A stretch of DNA of 64,000 bases from assembly GCA_000827325.1 (NCBI GenBank), contig KN832875.1, positions 496,001 through 560,000 of the forward strand. Direction: 5' to 3'. The stretch is from Oidiodendron maius Zn (Eukaryota; Ascomycota; Leotiomycetes; Myxotrichaceae). This document shows, in pieces, positions 10,300 through 46,987 of this stretch. Within the stretch, counting starts at the first letter, position 1; each line of letters begins with the position of its first letter. Made by a program: the position numbers and the translations under genes. The notes beneath the pieces are model-generated. The model was not told the DNA's origin. It saw only the letters and a program-made list of their open reading frames with translations, and ran no database searches.

Positions 10300-13200
10300 A
10301 TGCAACCTCTAAACCCTTTCCTGTCTGCCTTCTTCAAGAGCGCTCTACCGGCCCAGTGCTCTCCAGTTCATCATCATGTACGGTCCAGCCATCTACATGT
10401 CCTTCATAGAATCGATACTGATCATTATCTTAGATTCTACTAGTTCCCACTACCGAAGTTCTCCTTACCTCCCGCGATCGTGAGTCCGGCGCTCTCTACT
10501 CAGACCTTGCTGGGTCTGAAGAATTCCTGGGAAGTCATGTCTTGCGAGTACCACCAAACCAAGGTGCGGCGGGAGGGAAGGACGCGCCAAATATCCGTGA
10601 GAACCGGGGGAAGGCAAAGCAATACACGACTGTCAATGGCAGGACGGTAGTCGTTAAGGATGCACTTGTGTACAGCAATAAGGGTGGGCGAACTAGTTCC
10701 AAGATATATGACACTACTAATGATAGCGCAGGGTTCAAGACACTCAATCAGGCGCAGATATTAACTGACACACTATGGTATCCCGACTCCCTCGAGCCAA
10801 AGCAATGGCTTGTGTACTACATCTCCAAGCCCTTAGTAGGGACCTACGATGAAATCAAGATAGAGCCTGCTACCCTTCTATCTGGACTCCCTGATAATCA
10901 ACCTCTTCTCTCACTTCAACCATTGCAAGAACCATCCCAAGGGTCTACTAGTCCGCTACCCCGCAAGAAAGACATTAAAACCTTCAATGACCTTCTCAAT
11001 AACTTCCCTATGATTGCGAGGCAGATGCAGCCGGGGCTCGAGCGATTATTTAAAGAGTTCAACACCGTTTTTGAGAAACCTTTACCGCCACCTCCATCTG
11101 CGACGGTTATACCTGACCCGGAGCCCGAAGGCCCAATTGCCCAAGCTATTAAACAAGCTAGATCCAACAGTGCGAATTCAGCATCAAGCTTCCGATCCAA
11201 TGGCAGCGCGGATCGGACCACGCTTGATGAAGCCTATGCTGAGGATGACGAAGATGTGATGCGAGGTGCGTTGGAGACCGCAGTCACCGCGGCGATTGAT
11301 CTCTTCCAAATGGTGGATAAGCAGCAGTTGTCACTCCTGGGTGCAACCACAGATCTTACTGGGCCGGTTGTGGAGCGTTTAATTGAGCGATACGTGACCG
11401 AGCAAGTGCATGATACCGTACTCTATCCTAGGGTACGTGCCCTGCGACGCCTTGAAGATCTTGAACTGGAGTCTAAAATAAGGCAAATGGAATTCGTTGA
11501 TATCGCGCAGGTTGGAATAAATATCAATGGCGGAAGAAATGAGAAGCATGAGTTGAATCTCCGTCTGGGCCGTGCCATCGAAGAATTCCGAAAACTTGGA
11601 GTAGCAGGCAGTCCTCAGGAGATGATGGACATTTTACTCTCGACACTAAAGACAGTCACACAACTTACCGAAATCTCCCAGCGAGTTACCAACGGAACTC
11701 CCTCATCTGAGAAAGTGAGCTATGTTCTCACAATTAATGCCGATGCGCTGGTGTCACTCCTCTTAATAGTCCTTATCAGAGCACAAGTCCGTCATCTCCA
11801 TTCCCGTTTACTTTACATGCGTCACTTCATCTTTATAGATGATGTTGAAAGCGGAGAGATGGGATATGCGCTTAGCACTTTCGAAGCTGTTTTGTCATAC
11901 CTTGCAAGGGATTCAGGCGGTCTACGAAAAGCTAGTCGACGAAACAATAGGCTCTGGCAAGCAACAAGTAAAGGCGATGTTAAGGAGATGATGATGATAA
12001 TGGAGCCGGAAAAGGACTCTGATGAAGAAGACGAAAACAATGAAGTTATTACCGAGGAAGCTGCTGTCATCTTGCCTTGGACAGCATCAAATGGCCGTTC
12101 ACGTCGATCGTCTTTGCGGACGAGTTTTAGCAGAGGTTCGACCCTCAATCATGTATTCCCGTTCCAGATCCGCCATGCAGATGATGACGATGGGCGATTT
12201 CCGCCTCTACGGAGACCGAAGTCGGTGAAGATGGACGTGCGGAGCATGTCAAGCGGGTCAGAGAGGTCATTCGGGTCCAGAGCGACGACAATCGATTCGA
12301 TAGGTAGTGGCATTGAGGGTGACACTTCAATAGAACGACTTTCGCAGACTGAAGATTCAGCTGGAGAATCTATCCCGATGATGGCAATTCAGAATCGGCA
12401 ACCGGAAGCATTGAAATACTTGTTATCACTATACAGCTACTACCCCTTGCATGTCATTCTCGAGGACACAAATAACGAAGGCACAACCCTCTTGAGCGCA
12501 GCTGTTCAACTAGGACACACAGAACTCATCAACATTATCTTGGACTTCATATATCAAGCACAGTCCGAGTCAATTGTGATTGATTACCTTGCTAAGCAAG
12601 ACAGTAGAGGCAGGAGCGTTGCCCATTATCTGTTTAACGCGCCACAGTTGATTCAACGCGTCGGACACCTATTGCCCTGGCGACAAAAGGACAAGAATGG
12701 TCAGACGCCTCTCTTTGCATTATGCAGATCTTATGATAATGGTAATTATCGAACAATGGTGGAGGCTGGGCTTGTCGCAGCCACTATCTTTCAAGGCGAT
12801 GGCCAGTCTTTGCATCTAGATGACCACATCGATTCGAAAGGTAATACACTGCTTCATATTATCAACGACGCGCAGATTACAGTTAACCTCCTCCGCTGTG
12901 ATTCGGATGTTAATGCGACAAACGACAAGAAATTTACTCCCCTAATGGTAGCTAGCAAATATGGTAGGCTTGAGATGGTTAGGGCTTTGTTCGGAGATCC
13001 AAGGGTAGACCTCTTTGCCAAGGAACTCCGTGGTCTCACAGCTGTAGAACTTGCGAAAGATGACGATGTTCGGAATCGAATCGACGATCTGATACTCTTC
13101 TCCGCGCATCCTGCCCCAGATGGACGAATGACAGCTGTCGTTCGTTCCTTTTTCGTTGAAGATGCAACTATCCGTCTGGTCGTGAAATCAGGCGCGCCAT

Positions 13201-14343
13201 CAGCAGCTCATAGCTTCACGGTCACAACGTGCCGACGGTCGCTTGGAGATTTCGAGCATTTGGCTAAGCTACTCGCACTCGAAAATCCAGCTTCATGGTT
13301 GCCGTCCATATCGGGGATGCGATCACCCTTCCAAATATTTTCAAAACCTTCAAGGGCGGTGCTTCGGGACATCCAAGTCCGCCTGGATTGGTTTTTGAAA
13401 ATATTACTGGCCCATTCGACATTTTCCACCCATGAAATGTTGTGGGAGTTCTTCCTTGTGCCCGATATCCAAGCGGAAATGATGGAACAGCGAAGCCAGC
13501 TGAAAGCCGAGGCGAGGATGGAGACTGTACGAGAGGAGTATGAGCCCGTTGAGAACGTTCACGACGTGGAACAGTTCGTGGATCATGCGAGAGAAACAAT
13601 CAGGGGTCTCAACTACTCTACTAAAAGCGTTGCGAGGAGGTCGAATATGCTCCATGGGGCAGTAACGGGTATGCATGGCTACTCTTCCCAATCCGATACT
13701 GCTAACGATGGTAGATCTCTATGATGCCGCAAGTCTCTCCTCGCGTGCAGTGGCCACTTTACCATTTCTCCCGGAAACGCATATCTCAGCATTCGATGCC
13801 TACGTCCAGACTCTAGCGCCATCTTCCTCCTCACCGTACGCAGCATACCACTCGACCGTGCTGTCGACGCATGGGACCATAGTTGCAATGCTCTTGGCAC
13901 TTTCGCGGCCCACGTCGCTCATATCCACGATCAACACGTCCCGGAAAGCGATTGAGCGATCGTATAATTCGCTCAGTCGCTCTACTCGCTGGCCTCTAGG
14001 ATTGCTCGATGAGACTCGGCAGCGAATTAACGAAGAGAAAGAAGAAAAAGCCAGGCGGGCAAAGGAAGAGGAAGAAGGGCTAGGACGCGAGCTTCGTTAC
14101 ACGCAGCAAGTCGTTGCAGCAGAGCTGGCGGGGTGGCAAGACCTTCACGGAAAGATGGGGCGCAGAGCTATCCGTGATCTAGCCAAAGCCGTGCTTACCA
14201 AGGAGCGTGCAGCTCTAGAGGGGATGAGGAGGGCGATGAGGAAGCTGACGCTCCCCTCGGTCGCCCGAGTTGTGACGACGAATGATGAAGAGACTGAAGG
14301 AGAAGTCGAAGGCGAGGGGGAAGGGCGAAGGCAAGCGTCATAA
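10300..14343 (+). CDS. VPS9-ankyrin-PX protein, predicted RAB5/VPS21-type GEF
   Basis: Exons 10300-10377, 10434-13668 and 13715-14343 give about 1313 aa. The first join makes SPVHHHILLVPTTEVLLTSRD. The last crosses a 46-nt intron with a GCTAAC branch site and joins MLHGAVT to DLYDAASLSSRAV. Domains in order: an N-terminal conserved region; a VPS9 domain (about 330-520) with the conserved Asp in TINADALVSLL and Tyr in GEMGYALSTFEA; a Ser-rich linker; ankyrin repeats (about 670-910, e.g. GTTLLSAAVQLGHTELINII and TPLMVASKYGRLEMVRAL); a PX phosphoinositide-binding domain (about 925-1040); and a charged coiled coil (about 1200-1260). VPS9 domains activate endosomal RAB5/Vps21 GTPases. The layout recalls human VARP/ANKRD27, with a PX added. 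If the last intron is kept, translation stops after 18 intron-derived residues at 13724. Confidence 0.9.
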
Positions 14344-23992: not shown

Positions 23993-26847
23993 ATGGCCAC
24001 CCCTCCAGCTGTGGAAGACCAGGCCCGGTTACTTGAAGATGCTTTGACAGTGGTAAGGCAACAGACACATCTGATGCGCAAGTGCTTGGAAACCCCAGGA
24101 AAGCTTATGGATGCTCTGAAATGCAGGTTAGTTAGCCTCTATATTGCCATTGGCTTTATTCCATTGCATGCGCATGGCGCAGATCCTCTTAAGTTCGAGC
24201 TCGTACTGATTCGTCATTTCTCTCATCTAAAGCTCAACCCTTGTATCAGAGCTTCGAACAAGCAGCCTAGGACCGAAGCAATACTACGAACTTTACATGG
24301 CTGTATTTGATGCTTTGAGACATCTGTCATCCTATCTAAAGGATTCCCATCCAGTCAATCATCTCGCCGATTTATACGAACTGGTTCAGTATGCAGGCAA
24401 CATAATACCTCGACTCTACCTGATGATCACAGTGGGCACTGTATACATGTCAATTGAGGATGCGCCGGTCAAGGAGATTATGAAAGACATGATGGAGATG
24501 AGCAGAGGCGTCCAACATCCCATCAGAGGGCTTTTCTTGCGGTATTATTTGTCAGGACAGGCTCGAGATAATCTACCTGCAGGGACAGGCGATGGGCCGG
24601 AAGGGAACTTGCAAGACTCGATCAGTTTCATCCTGACCAATTTTGTGGAGATGAATAAGCTTTGGGTTCGGTTACAACACCAAGGCCATTCGAGAGAAAG
24701 AGATCTGAGGACGCAGGAGCGGAAAGAGCTGCAGTTACTAGTGGGCAACAATCTGGTTCGATTGAGTCAACTTGTGGATCTGGACACATACAAGAACGTC
24801 ATATTGCAGCCCCTTCTGGAGCAGGTCGTACAGTGCCGAGATGTGCTGGCTCAGGAATATCTGCTAGAAGTCATAACCCAGGTCTTTCCCGACGAATTTC
24901 ACCTTCATACTCTGGACCAATTCCTTGCTGCAGTCTCTCGCCTCAATCCTCATGTTAATATCAAAGTCATCGTTATTGGCCTCATGGATAGGTTATCTGC
25001 ATATGCTGCACGGGAATCGGAGGTCCTTCCTTCGGAGGATCGCCAGAATATGGAGGAGGAGTCAATCGCCAAGCTTCTGGAGAAGATACGGCTTGATCAA
25101 GAGAGAAAGCCTGAAGAACCGGCAAAGGCAGAGAATAAAGAGGTAGAATCGACAGAATCTGCAGAAGCTGATGAAACGGCGCCGGAAACCTTGCCCAAAT
25201 CTTCTGCAGAATCCGAGGTCAGCAAATCCGAAGAGAAAGTCTCACCTGAACATGTTAACGGGACAGAATATGTGCCGGAAAAGAAGAGCAGAGGGATCCC
25301 AGAGAGCATCAAGCTTTACGAAATATTCTTCGAGCAGGTCATGAATCTAGTTAATGCCCAGCACCTCCCGATTCAAGACACGACTGCTCTCCTCGTCTCG
25401 CTGGCCAATCTCGCACTCAACATATATCCCGAGCGTCTTGATTATGTTGACCAAGTCCTTGAATATGCAAACCAAAAGGTCAAGCAACACGCGAACAGCG
25501 CTGATCTCCATTCCCAAGAGTCACAAACGTATCTTCTCAACCTCCTTTTAGCCCCTATGAAATCTTACTTCTCCATGTTTACAGCGCTCTCTCTGCCAAC
25601 TTATATTCCTTTACTCCATTCGCAAACGTACCCTACCCGTCGCGCTGTTGCAGGTGAGGTTGCGCGAAGTTTACACAGAAACCAGACAAAGATTTCATCT
25701 CCAGCGGCCCTCGAGGGCGTTCTAGAGATTTTGAAAGTCCTCATTAAAGAAGGCACGCAACAACCTGCTGGTTATCCAGGAGTGCAACAAAGGAAGGCAA
25801 TCGAGACGGATGAGACGATAGAAGAACAAGGCTGGCTGGCACGGATTGTTCATCTGATCCACAGTGACGACAATGCTACCCAGTACAAGCTCCTACAGAT
25901 GACAAAACAGGCATATGCAGAAGGCAATGAGAGGGTTAAGTTCACAACGCCCCCATTGATCACCGCAGCTATGAAACTCGCAAGGAGATACAAAGCCAGA
26001 GAGCACTATGACAACAACTGGGAATCACAGTCGGCTGCACTCTACAAGTTCATGCACTCTGCCCTTTCCCAGCTCTACACCCGAGTTCCCAGCTCTGCCG
26101 AGCTCTGTCTTCGTCTTTTTGTTGCATGTGGGCAGGTTGCCGATCAAACCAGTGCCGAGGAAGTCAGCTACGAGTTTTTTGCTCAAGCCTTCACTATTTA
26201 TGAGGAGGCTATAAGCGACTCTCGAGCACAGTTCCAAGCCGTCTGCGTAATTGCTGGAGCGCTGCACGAGACGAGAAATTTTGGCAAGGAGAATTATGAT
26301 ACTTTGATCACTAAATGTGCGCTCCACGGCAGCAAACTCCTAAAGAAGCCAGACCAATGCCGGGCAGTGTACTTGGCAAGCCATCTTTGGTGGGCGGTTC
26401 CCAATATTGCCAAGGGTGAGACTGAAGAGACAACTGGAGTGCGTATTCCTAACCCTATGCATCTAGATGCCGGCTAACCTTTTGAAGTTGTACCGAGACG
26501 GCAAGCGAGTTCTCGAATGTTTACAACGCGCTCTCCGTGTTGCAGATGCCTGCATGGACACGGCCGTGTCAGTTGAGCTCTTCGTTGAAATCTTGAATCG
26601 TTATGTCTATTACTTTGATCAACAAAATGAGGCTGTGAGTGGTTCTTCATTACTGACTGGATTCTTATTAATCTTGAATCAGGTAACTACAAAATACCTC
26701 AACGGACTCATTGAACTCATCCACTCGAACTTGCAAACAAACCAGGAATCTGCGACGATTGAGATGCCAAAACGTCACTTCCAGCGAACACTTGAGTACA
26801 TTGCGTCGCGAGAATATGACGGTGTGATCACGGCGGCTGCAAAATAG
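23993..26847 (+). CDS. VPS35: Retromer cargo-selection subunit VPS35
   Basis: VPS35 is the alpha-solenoid backbone of retromer. It binds VPS26 at its N-terminus and VPS29 at its C-terminus for endosome-to-Golgi recycling. Exons 23993-24126, 24233-26438, 26488-26634 and 26683-26847 give 883 aa. Splice joins recreate conserved blocks: [39 protein letters not shown] and [18 protein letters not shown]. The VPS26-contact motif [10 protein letters not shown] is near residue 100. An acidic, Glu/Ser-rich insertion (about 330-390) is typical of fungal versions. The C-terminal HEAT region contains YLASHLWW and [14 protein letters not shown]26, its binding partner, lies about 19 kb downstream on the same strand. 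Confidence 0.97.
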
Positions 26848-27541: not shown

Positions 27542-30209
27542 ATGGCGGACGAGAAGCCTAACAAATACGAGCCACTACCAATACCTACCTACGAAGAAGC
27601 CATCGGATCCTCCTCTCGTTCCTCTACTCCGTACAATAATGAAGCTTCCGAGCCGGCCGAACGAGAAGGTCTGCTGGCCAGCGACCCGGGAGGTCGCCTC
27701 CCAGCGCCAACAAGACGAGCTGGATATCGTCCACCACCGACGGACGGGACTCCATCGGTGAGCGATGTTGGCGAGCAGGAGCATGATACATTTCTGAACC
27801 AGCAGGATGATCGGCGGGATAGCAATGCAATGGAAGATGAGGAGGTACGACGAGAAATGGAGGAGCTGGAGATTGTGGATCCGCCGACACAATCCACTTG
27901 GGGGAAGAGGTTAACACGATCGTTGTCCTCAATAAACCTTCCGTTCAAATTGCCGAAGTTTAATATCCAGTGGAAGTGGCCCCGAATACGCTTCGATGCG
28001 AATACATGCGTTATTCTGACTAGGTGCTTTGCTGTTCTTCTGGTTATGGCCGTGGTGTATCTGTTATTCATGAGTGACATCTTCACGGGCGCGGCGCAGA
28101 GGATGAGCGCGCAGATGTTCGATCCCGAGAGTGTACGGCGTCATGTACAGTCCGTCGTTAATGTTGGGAGGATAGAAGAACACCTGAGAAAGATTACTCA
28201 GAACGACCACTTGGCTGGCACAGAAGGCGATTATATGTTGGCGAAGTATGTACAGGATTACTTCCGCGCGTCAGGGCTCGAAGATGTACATATGGAGGAG
28301 TTTAGGGTATATTTGAATTATCCTAAACAAGGAGGCCGGAAAGTCGAAATTCTGACGAAGGATGGTAGTGTACAGTGGTCGGCCAAGATTAACGAGGACC
28401 CAATGTACAAAGACCCCCCAAGACAAGAGACCCCAGTTTTCCATGGACACTCGCGGAGTGGCGACGTTACTGGACCGTTGATTTATGCAAATTACGGATC
28501 GAAAGAGGATTTCAAGAGATTGCATGATAGTGGGATTGATACCAAGGGAGCGATTGCTTTGGTTAGGACTTCAGGTCCGAGAGATGGAGCGTTGAAGGTA
28601 AAGGCAGCGGAATTGACTGGGTTTGTGGGTTGTATAATATACAGTGATCCAGCGGACAGTGGCTTCGTAAAGGGCAAGGTGGCCCCAGATGGGAGATACA
28701 TGCCGGAGGGAGGAGTGCAACGGGACTCTGTGAGTTTACCAAACTGGGTGGCAGGAGATCCTCTCACACCGGGTTGGGCGAGTACAGAAGGAGCTAAGGC
28801 GAACTCAAAAGACAACAATCCTGCACTTGTCAGCATCCCAAGTATTCCCCTGTCTTGGGGCGATGCTCAGCACCTACTGCAAGCTATCAAGGGAGTTGGG
28901 GTAGCGTGCCCCGACGAATGGAAAGGTGGTATCCCCAAAACGGAGTACTGGTCAGGAGATCAATCTTCCCCGAAAGTTCATCTACTCAATGACCAAGACG
29001 AAGTCGAGAAGCAACGCATTTGGAATGTCATGGCAAAGATTCAAGGCATTGAACAAAGAGAAAAGTCCATTATTATCGGCAACCACCGAGATGCCTGGGT
29101 CTACGGCGCGGCTGGACCAGGCTCTGGCACTGCTGTCATGCTTGAAGTTGCTGCTATTTTTGGAGATCTCATGCAGCGTGGTTGGAGACCTCTGCGAACC
29201 ATTGAGTTTGCTTCTTGGGATGCTGGAGAATTCAATCTCATGGGTTCGACTGAATATGTGGAGGCTAATATTGATCATCTGCGTGAGCATGCGTTTGTGT
29301 ACATGAATGTCGACACTGGTGTTGGTGGACATGAATTCAAAGCAAGAGGAAATCCAATATTCCGGAAGGCTTTGTTGCAAGTACTTGAGCGAATATCAGA
29401 TCCTCTGGAAAATGCCACACTCCGTGAGCTTTGGGATCGGCGTGGTGGACAGCTGGACAGTCTTGGCGTTGACAGTGATTATGTTGCCTTCCAAGATATG
29501 GCAGGCACCTCAAGTCTTGACTTTGGATTCGATGGTCCAAATACGTACCAATCAGCATACGACACTTTTGAACAAGCGGCGTTGGGCGATCCTGGATTTC
29601 AGTATCATGGCTTGCTCACACAGATATGGTCATTACTTGTTCTTGAATTTAGCGACCATCTTATACTTCCGTTTGATATCTCAGCATATGCAGCTGCAGC
29701 TGCGCAATGGGCTATTGATCTTGAAAATTGGGTGGGGAGCCAAGGTGCAAACCAAAACGGCAATACCCCTTGGAATATAGAGCCCCTGCGTGAGGCAGTA
29801 TTGCAATTCATAAACGATGCGAAACGGTTTGAGGATTTCGAGGATGAATGGGATCATGCCGTGCTAGGAAATGGAGGATTTGAGAATGCGATTGCTTCTG
29901 CGCATAGGCAAAGCCATAACACTCGGATGGCCAATCTTGAGACACACTTACTGGACTTAGAGCAGGGCGGCGGAGTACGTCAAACTTACCACCTTTAAAC
30001 GTCAATATGCTAATACGAAGCAGTTACCCAACCGAACACAATTCAAACATACTCTGTTCGGACCACAAATTTGGTCCAACGGTCAGGCATGTTTTCCCTA
30101 TGTTGTCGACGCGGTATCAGGCGGCAACTGGACGTTAGCGAAGATACAGGTTGAGAAAACAGCTGCAATTCTCAAAAGGGCAAGTAGGAAAATGGTTGGC
30201 AATAATTGA
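27542..30209 (+). CDS. Transferrin-receptor/glutamate-carboxypeptidase-like (M28B) type II membrane protein, probably catalytically inactive (Tre1/Tre2-like)
   Basis: Exons 27542-29974 and 30024-30209 (49-nt intron, branch GCTAATAC) give 872 aa. The cytosolic N-terminus (about 1-155) is acidic and has a PY-like sequence, LPIPTYEEAI. One transmembrane helix follows (about 157-180, ILTRCFAVLLVMAVVYLLF), then PA, M28 and TfR-dimerisation domains. The fold is clear, but active-site positions differ from human GCPII. The first zinc-binding His is kept (GNHRDAWVYG). The bridging-Asp site reads AAGPGSG. The catalytic Glu site reads WDAGEFNLMGSTEY, with Gly for Glu and the adjacent zinc-ligand Glu kept. 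Asp is kept in YMNVDTG. The last His site reads TYQSAYDT. This pattern resembles transferrin receptors and yeast Tre1/Tre2, which recruit Bsd2-Rsp5 to metal transporters. The adaptor role is inferred. Confidence 0.85.
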
Positions 30210-45523: not shown

Positions 45524-45852
45524 GGTGAGCTTTTTGACAGGCGCTGCCGCCTACGCGGCGCGGAGATCGCGGAGGAGTAGAACAATTCAAATTTCTAGCC
45601 GTTCCTCTAGCCTTTCGCAAAGATAATTTATTGCGTACAGGATGTGTTGATAAGGTATGCGCCCTGGAGCCCGCGAATTGAGAGATCAGAAAAAGATGTG
45701 GTGCAGGAGGCTGAAGCCTTGTAGAGCTTCGCTTGGGTGAAGCGACGGACCCGCGTCAGTGCCTGCATCAACAACCTCATTGCGCATTTACATGTACACT
45801 TGTCAAATTCCCTCCACGATCTCTTGACGGGCCGTGAAAATCCCTCCTCAAG
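45524..45852. other. Divergent promoter region, LSM8/VPS26
   Basis: About 330 nt; no clear motif was recognised. Confidence 0.4.
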
Positions 45853-46987
45853 ATGTCGTACTTCTTCTCAACACCAGTCGACATCGATATCGTACTCGAC
45901 GATGGGGACGACCGGCAGATGGTGGACATGAAAGCCGATAAGGGACGGCGAGAGAAGGCGCCACTCTACAAGGACGGCGAATCAGTGAAAGGCGCAGTGA
46001 CGGTTCGTCCGAAAGATGGCAAGCGATTAGAGCACACAGGCATCAAGGTGCAGTTCATTGGAACAATTGGTATATACCCACCTCTCTCTGGAGTAGAATA
46101 CCCTAGTGGTAGGCTGACGAGGACGATAGAGATGTTCTTCGACCGAGGCAACCACTACGAATTCCTCTCCCTGGGTCAAGAATTGGCGGCCCCAGGTGAC
46201 CTCCAGCATCCTCAAGCGTTCGACTTCAACTTCAAGAACGTGGAGAAGCAGTACGAGTCCTACAGCGGCATCAACGTACGCCTGCGGTATTTTGTCCGCG
46301 TCACCGTCTCGAGGAGGATGGCGGACGTGATTAGAGAGAAGGACATCTGGGTCTATTCCTACAAGGTGCCGCCTGAGATGAACAGCTCGATCAAGATGGA
46401 TGTGGGAATTGAGGACTGTCTACACATCGAATTCGAGTACTCAAAGTCGAAATACCATCTCAAGGATGTGATTGTGGGCCGTATCTACTTCTTGCTAGTG
46501 AGGCTGAAGATCAAGCATATGGAACTGTCGATTATACGGAGGGAGACGACTGGCGTAGCGCCAAATCAATACAACGAGAGCGAGACGTTGGTGCGGTTCG
46601 AGGTAGGTTACTTGCACAGCATCACTTAGCCCCCGCTCACAATTCACAGATTATGGATGGTTCACCGTCGAGGGGAGAGACCATACCTATCCGCCTGTTC
46701 CTAGGTGGCTTCGATCTTACCCCTACTTTCAGAGAAGTAAATAAGAAATACTCAACCAGATATTACCTAAGTCTCGTCCTCATTGACGAGGGTAAGTCAA
46801 CGTCTTACCGCGGTCTAAAGAGCAGATATCTGATATAATCGTAGATGCACGAAGATACTTCAAGCAGTCCGAGATCGTTCTCTACCGCCAACAACCTGAA
46901 ATTGCTGCCGCAGCGGGTCAGCAGACGCAGATCACAGGCGCGCCACCTCCAGAACGCAAGCAGGCAGTCCCGGAGGTAGCTGCGTGA
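45853..46987 (+). CDS. VPS26: Retromer subunit VPS26
   Basis: This arrestin-fold subunit of the retromer trimer binds the VPS35 N-terminus and contributes to cargo selection. Exons 45853-46602, 46650-46791 and 46845-46987 give 344 aa. Conserved blocks include STPVDIDIVLDD, YKDGESVKGAVTVRPKDGK, HTGIKVQFIG, FDFNFKNVEKQYESYSGINV, LRYFVRVTV and DVGIEDCLHIEFEY. DVIVGRIYFLLVRLKIKHME and, across the last splices, GETIPIRLFLGG and DEDARRYFKQSEIVLYR follow. The tail is Pro/Gln/Ala-rich, as in other fungi. Together with VPS35 in this window, two of the three cargo-recognition subunits are encoded within 23 kb; VPS29 was not found here. Confidence 0.97.

What the first reader, a model, noticed from the sequence alone, without database searches (positions are those of the whole stretch)
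27542..30209. M28/transferrin-receptor-like protein with three of the catalytic or metal positions replaced
Compared with glutamate carboxypeptidase II, the bridging Asp, the catalytic Glu and the last His ligand are replaced by Gly, Gly and Gln, while the first His, one Glu and one Asp remain. The surrounding motifs align without gaps. With its PY-like N-terminal LPIPTYEEAI and single anchor it resembles yeast Tre1/Tre2, adaptors for Rsp5-dependent turnover of metal transporters. It may be a non-enzymatic receptor/adaptor in filamentous fungi. An HMT1-like metal transporter lies in the same window.
Basis: partly seen in the sequence, partly recalled or inferred. Interest (0 to 1): 0.7.

Follow-up and report, generated by a model that had tools for sequence, protein, structure and literature searches.

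The report
Fungal transferrin-receptor-like inactive peptidase
This fungal gene encodes a membrane protein built like a zinc peptidase whose catalytic centre has decayed, so it probably works as a sorting receptor or adaptor like yeast Tre1/Tre2 rather than as an enzyme.

Summary
Window 27542-30209 (+) is an intact gene (872-873 aa, one short intron): N-terminal tail, one anchor, then PA, M28 and TFR_dimer domains. Against GCPII, bridging Asp387, catalytic Glu424 and ligand His553 are Gly525, Gly562 and Gln670; His377, Glu425 and Asp453 remain. Every scorable bacterial homolog (62-64 of 65 loci per position) and the only other TFR_dimer protein found in the same 46-Mb genome keep all six. The damage goes further than reported: both residues that hold the substrate's C-terminal carboxylate (Arg210, Tyr700) are also gone. 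Nine active-site positions lost 5, against 3 of 43 other near-invariant positions (Fisher p = 0.002; weaker with the six zinc-centre positions alone). An enzyme is unlikely. Bsd2, Rsp5 and Nramp homologs are encoded too, so a Tre1/Tre2-like adaptor is the best reading; but the tail motif is IPTY, not PPxY/LPxY, and no yeast or other fungal ortholog could be compared. The HMT1-like neighbour gives no support. In passing: the genome's only Vps35 and Vps26 matches both lie in this window. New member of a known kind.

The parts
27542..29974 (+). Exon 1: residues 1-811 of the transferrin-receptor/GCPII-like protein
   Evidence: Open frame; Pfam PA 309-396, Peptidase_M28 495-679, first part of TFR_dimer; PDB GCPII E 2e-82
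29975..30023 (+). Intron (GTACGT donor; acceptor 30020 or 30023, 46 or 49 nt)
   Evidence: Both acceptors keep the frame to the TGA at 30207-30209; inferred, no transcript data
30024..30209 (+). Exon 2: C-terminal end of the TFR_dimer domain and stop
   Evidence: Pfam TFR_dimer 1.4e-19, profile 49-119 of 121
27581..27601 (+). PY-like motif IPTYEEA (residues 14-20) in the cytosolic tail
   Evidence: Sequence and motif scan; non-canonical (Ile in place of Pro/Leu)
27659..27676 (+). Acidic dileucine EREGLL (residues 40-45) in the cytosolic tail
   Evidence: the paralog has ERTPLI in its own tail
28010..28066 (+). Single transmembrane anchor, residues 157-175, basic residues on the N-terminal side (type II)
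   Evidence: Best Kyte-Doolittle 19-residue window, 2.57
28583..28585 (+). Asp348 at the GCPII Arg210 position (substrate carboxylate)
   Evidence: Arg in 64 of 64 scorable bacterial homologs and in the paralog; a one-residue insertion beside it makes the register uncertain by one (Arg347 is next to it)
29084..29086 (+). His515 = His377 (kept zinc ligand)
29114..29116 (+). Gly525 at the bridging Asp387 position
   Evidence: Asp in 64 of 64 and in the paralog
29225..29230 (+). Gly562-Glu563 at Glu424-Glu425 (general base lost, ligand kept)
   Evidence: Glu-Glu in 62 of 62 and in the paralog
29312..29314 (+). Asp591 = Asp453 (kept zinc ligand)
29549..29551 (+). Gln670 at the His553 position
   Evidence: His in 62 of 62 and in the paralog
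30081..30083 (+). Gly831 (numbering with acceptor 30023) at the Tyr700 position (substrate carboxylate)
   Evidence: Tyr in 61 of 62 and in the paralog

Best explanation
A catalytically dead member of the GCPII/transferrin-receptor group: a type II, probably dimeric endomembrane protein of a fungus. Its lumenal ectodomain keeps the domains and most conserved positions but lacks residues needed for the two-zinc centre and the reaction (shown at sequence level). Most likely it works as yeast Tre1/Tre2 do: the ectodomain recognises a cargo membrane protein such as the Nramp metal transporter, while the 156-residue cytosolic tail, together with Bsd2, brings Rsp5 so that the cargo is ubiquitinated and sent to the vacuole (all of this last part inferred).
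For: Loss of D387, E424, H553 against 64, 62 and 62 of as many scorable bacterial homologs and the paralog. Loss of R210 and Y700, kept by the paralog and by 64 of 64 and 61 of 62 bacteria. Loss is concentrated: 5 of 9 active-site positions against 3 of 43 other positions at least 98% conserved, Fisher p 0.002. Frame, domains and anchor intact. The searches find two TFR_dimer proteins in the genome, this one and an intact one. The genome has one Bsd2-family match, whose tail after splicing (read by eye) gives PPTYEQAAADAAPPYW, an Rsp5-like frame with three WW domains and HECT and Nramp matches at one place. Tre1/2 are described as TM + TFR dimer + PA Rsp5 adaptors acting with Bsd2 on Smf1 (passages of PMC6232821, PMC8050425, PMC9105457).
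Against: The tail motif IPTY is not the PPXY/LPXY form given for Rsp5 (PMC2810449 passage). A DNA pattern for P-x-Y-E-E-A is about as common in the genome as its reversed control (4 against 3). No yeast or other fungal ortholog could be compared, no structure model could be made, and there are no expression or localisation data. With the six zinc-centre positions alone the concentration test is weak (p 0.17, 0.075, 0.04, 0.025 at 90, 95, 98, 100% conservation).
Confidence: 0.6

Rival explanations
1. Inactive peptidase fold used as a receptor or chaperone for another partner (for example a retromer- or AP-sorted cargo receptor), not as an Rsp5 adaptor.
For: Catalytic loss as above; acidic dileucine in the tail; next gene after the only Vps35 match of the genome and about 16 kb from the only Vps26 match.
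Against: Gene neighbourhood is weak evidence in fungi; dileucine-type motifs are common; the intact paralog has one too.
Confidence: 0.25
2. Still an enzyme, with a rearranged or single-metal site using His515 and Asp591.
For: His and Asp of one zinc pair and Glu563 of the other remain, as does Tyr552 (Y669). Acidic residues lie near the lost positions, among them E555, where the paralog has Val.
Against: Bridge, general base and both substrate anchors are gone; no His lies within 15 residues of the lost His553 or Glu424 positions. The E424A mutant of GCPII is reported to have lost all activity (PMC8538779 passage). No structure model was available to exclude a rearranged site.
Confidence: 0.06
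3. A decaying pseudogene.
For: Five conserved active-site residues lost; terminal branch 1.46 against 1.11 for the paralog; mean identity to the bacterial homologs 28% against 31% for the paralog.
Against: Reading frame without an internal stop through both exons, all three domains present; 40 of 43 other near-invariant positions kept.
Confidence: 0.03

Closest known systems
Yeast Tre1/Tre2 (transferrin-receptor-like Rsp5 adaptors)
   Same: TM + PA + TFR_dimer build; cytosolic tail with a PY-like motif; Bsd2, Rsp5 and Nramp homologs in the same genome
   Different: IPTY instead of PPxY; orthology not tested because no yeast sequence was available
Human transferrin receptor 1 (TfR1)
   Same: Related fold with a lost zinc site; position 424 is Gly in both; D453 kept in both (read ungapped by eye)
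   Different: TfR1 also has Gln at H377, Lys at D387 and Asp at E425; no transferrin is known to me from fungi (recalled)
Human GCPII/PSMA
   Same: Best structure-database match, E 2e-82, aligned over residues 207-766 of the window protein
   Different: Window protein lacks D387, E424, H553, R210 and Y700
Same-genome paralog, G000:C12 about 529-531.6 kb (L015)
   Same: Type II anchor, PA, M28, TFR_dimer; acidic dileucine in the tail
   Different: All nine active-site positions kept; short tail without lysine or PxY

Membership tests
Transferrin receptor / GCPII (M28B) superfamily | PA, M28 and TFR_dimer domains behind a single N-terminal anchor | tested here: met
Active M28B peptidase | Five zinc ligands H377, D387, E425, D453, H553 | tested here: not met
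   Three of five kept; D387 and H553 lost
Active M28B peptidase | General base Glu424 | tested here: not met
   Gly562
Active M28B peptidase | Substrate carboxylate anchors Arg210 and Tyr700 | tested here: not met
   Asp348 and Gly831; register of the first uncertain by one
Tre1/Tre2 Rsp5 adaptors | TM + PA + TFR_dimer | tested here: met
   defining build from the PMC6232821 table passage
Tre1/Tre2 Rsp5 adaptors | PPxY/LPxY motif in the cytosolic tail | tested here: inconclusive
   Only IPTYEEA found in the tail; pattern not enriched in the genome
Tre1/Tre2 Rsp5 adaptors | Partner set present in the genome (Bsd2, Rsp5, Nramp) | tested here: met
Tre1/Tre2 Rsp5 adaptors | Closer by descent to Tre1/2 than to yeast Vps70 | not testable with these tools
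   No yeast or other fungal genome was found in the collections that could be searched
Tre1/Tre2 Rsp5 adaptors | Binding to Bsd2/Rsp5 and effect on Nramp turnover | not testable with these tools
   Needs bench work

The most novel reading that the evidence does not exclude
The surviving half of one zinc pair (His515, Asp591, with Glu563 of the other pair) is kept as a weak single-metal site that lets the ectodomain sense lumenal metal and so time the turnover of a metal transporter: a peptidase centre turned into a metal sensor.
Probability: 0.05. Interest if true: 0.75.

Novelty: new member of a known kind. Interest (0 to 1): 0.36.

Why it matters
Domain hits alone would name this gene a peptidase: Pfam puts it over the M28 cut-off, and one fungal transcriptome paper names a protein of this build a metallopeptidase in its section on virulence factors (passage of PMC3425160). 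This gene has lost catalytic residues while its paralog has not, which gives a simple residue rule for telling the two apart. It also points to an Rsp5/Bsd2-type metal-transporter control branch in a filamentous fungus; one paper calls manganese homeostasis largely unexplored in fungi other than S. cerevisiae (passage of PMC10964418).

Tried and rejected
Fungal orthologs: two scans of viral contigs gave none; the one genome-contig scan gave 65 loci, all with bacterial record titles, used as the outgroup. NCBIfam gave no match. The HMT1-like claim: an ABC-type signature LSGGEKQR lies at 423 on the + strand at the window edge; whether it is HMT1 was not tested, and it is too far to bear on function. 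PY motif enrichment: 4 matches against 3 for the reversed control, rejected as evidence; one of the four is the window gene, one (L104) reads PPPSYEEA, the other two read PTYEEA and PCYEEA in short frames. Literature: searches. The primary Tre1/2 paper (Stimpson 2006) is not held, so whether it already notes lost catalytic residues in Tre1/2 is unknown to me. For PMC2810449, PMC8050425, PMC8003315, PMC10964418, PMC2171029, PMC9105457, PMC6232821, PMC10794815, PMC12045970, PMC10865363, PMC8538779, PMC2409186, PMC3425160, PMC2643938 and PMC4832277 only passages were seen.

Bias to note: one of the two patterns that fetched the bacterial loci contains His377 itself ([IV]IGNHRDA), so its 64 of 64 is partly built in; the other eight positions are in neither pattern. 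Columns with fewer than 50 bacterial letters were left out of the concentration tests. Asn257 and Lys699, also named as substrate residues in PMC10794815, were left out of the nine because bacteria do not keep them (Ser in 60 of 64 at 257; the column before Tyr700 is Gly in 58 of 62). The nine were fixed only after the first test with six had been seen.

Full report
What is there. The gene runs from an ATG at 27542 to a TGA at 30207-30209 on the + strand. Exon 1 codes 811 residues; a 46- or 49-nt intron follows (GTACGT donor; both acceptors keep the frame), and exon 2 completes the TFR_dimer domain. The protein has a 156-residue tail, one anchor at 157-175 with basic residues before it, three N-glycosylation sequons after it, then PA, M28 and TFR_dimer domains. 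The best solved relatives are human GCPII (E 2e-82), GCPIII, NAALADL1 and TfR1. The window lies at 496001-560000 of contig C6 in a 45.9-Mb assembly of 58 contigs. Small introns and gene content suggest a filamentous ascomycete (inference; no name was given).

Catalytic positions. In GCPII, His377 and Asp453 hold one zinc, Glu425 and His553 the other, Asp387 bridges, Glu424 is taken as the base, and Arg210 and Tyr700 bind the substrate's C-terminal carboxylate (passages of PMC8538779; residues also in PMC10865363 and PMC10794815). The GCPII chains printed have Ala at 424; Glu is seen there in GCPIII. From 65 bacterial loci I took one open frame each, aligned them with the window protein and the paralog, and read the columns. 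Counts leave out gapped rows: H377, D387 and R210 64 of 64; E424, E425, D453, H553 and Y552 62 of 62 each; Y700 61 of 62. At H377, D387, E424, E425, D453, H553, Y552, R210 and Y700 the window has H, G, G, E, D, Q, Y, D and G. It keeps four of nine.

Is the loss concentrated? Of 52 columns at least 98% conserved in bacteria, the nine active-site columns lost 5 and the other 43 lost 3 (Fisher p 0.002; at 95%: 5 of 9 and 9 of 66, p 0.009; at 100%: 4 of 8 and 2 of 36, p 0.007). At 98% the paralog lost none of the nine and 2 of 43. With only the six zinc-centre positions the test is weak (p 0.17, 0.075, 0.04, 0.025 at 90, 95, 98, 100%). Columns are not independent, bacteria are a distant outgroup, and the set of nine was drawn up after the first test, so these values are a guide. 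Possible stand-ins within 15 residues: of position 670, no His, but D660, D664, D674, E677, D683; of 562, no His, but E555, D560, E563, E571, E574; of 525, H515, D517, E535. E555 is Val in the paralog. Without a model a rearranged site is not strictly excluded.

Internal control. The searches find two TFR_dimer proteins in the genome (such searches score only the best candidates). The other, on C12 (L015, 796 aa, one intron), has all nine positions; its second exon matches GCPIII best; it has a short tail with no lysine and no PxY. The two group together in a midpoint-rooted FastTree of 64 of the 67 sequences (support 0.985), with terminal branches of 1.46 (window) and 1.11 (paralog) against a median of 0.15; with no other fungal sequence the age of the split is open.

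Comparison with TfR1. Read by eye without gaps, TfR1 has Gln, Lys, Gly, Asp, Asp at H377, D387, E424, E425, D453. The window protein shares Gly at 424 but keeps H377 and E425. The calcium-site positions of GCPII (T269, Y272, E433, E436; recalled, no call) are T409, W412, E571 and E574 here and T, Y, E, E in the paralog, so the structural metal site may be kept while the zinc site is lost, as I recall for TfR1.

Function. Tre1/2 are described as TM, TFR dimer, PA proteins that act with Bsd2 to bring Rsp5 to Smf1 in the Golgi-endosome system (passages). The pathway's other members are encoded here: one Bsd2-family match at C7 whose exon junction, read by eye, gives PPTY followed by PPYW; Nramp matches at one place on C3; and on C2 a frame with three WW domains and HECT matching solved Rsp5 at E 6e-226. 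The tail motif of the window protein, LPIPTYEEAI, resembles the Bsd2 motif (PTYE[EQ]A) but has Ile where PPxY or LPxY has Pro or Leu. The adaptor role is therefore the leading inference, not a demonstrated fact.

Neighbourhood. More striking, the only Vps35 match of the genome ends 0.7-0.8 kb upstream and the only Vps26 match lies about 15.6 kb downstream; a VPS9 + ankyrin protein, one of three VPS9 matches in the genome, is at 10434-13721. Vps5-family matches lie on other contigs. Two single-copy retromer genes about 19 kb apart would be rare by chance (roughly 40 kb in 45.9 Mb, about 0.1%, judged after the fact).

Verdict. The protein is an inactive peptidase relative by sequence, most likely a receptor or adaptor of the Tre1/Tre2 kind. 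That kind is known; this is a new member, with a clean internal control.

Noticed in passing
24231-26847 and 45838-46629 (+): The genome's only Vps35 and only Vps26 matches (retromer core) both lie in this window about 19 kb apart, with the transferrin-receptor-like gene next after Vps35.
   Followed up: partly
10434-13724 (+): A 1096-residue open frame with a VPS9 domain and ankyrin repeats, the build I recall for VARP, a retromer partner; one of three VPS9 matches in the genome. A PDB search matched it through its ankyrin repeats only among the 60 of 198 hits shown.
   Followed up: partly
   Followed up: no
window protein residues 40-45 (27659-27676) and L015 paralog residues 5-10: Both TfR-like proteins have an acidic dileucine in the tail, EREGLL and ERTPLI, the form I recall for AP-3 sorting to the vacuole.
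   Followed up: no
L016-L080: GCPII-like proteins occur in 65 bacterial loci (Acidobacteria, Bacteroidetes, Planctomycetota, Myxococcales and others by record title), with the catalytic residues kept wherever they could be scored; the two fungal proteins group in a clade with Pyrinomonadaceae and Bacteroidetes MAG sequences, support 0.76.
   Followed up: no
L104 (C9 about 70.2 kb): A frame with the canonical PY motif PPPSYEEA in this genome, possibly another Rsp5 client or adaptor.
   Followed up: no
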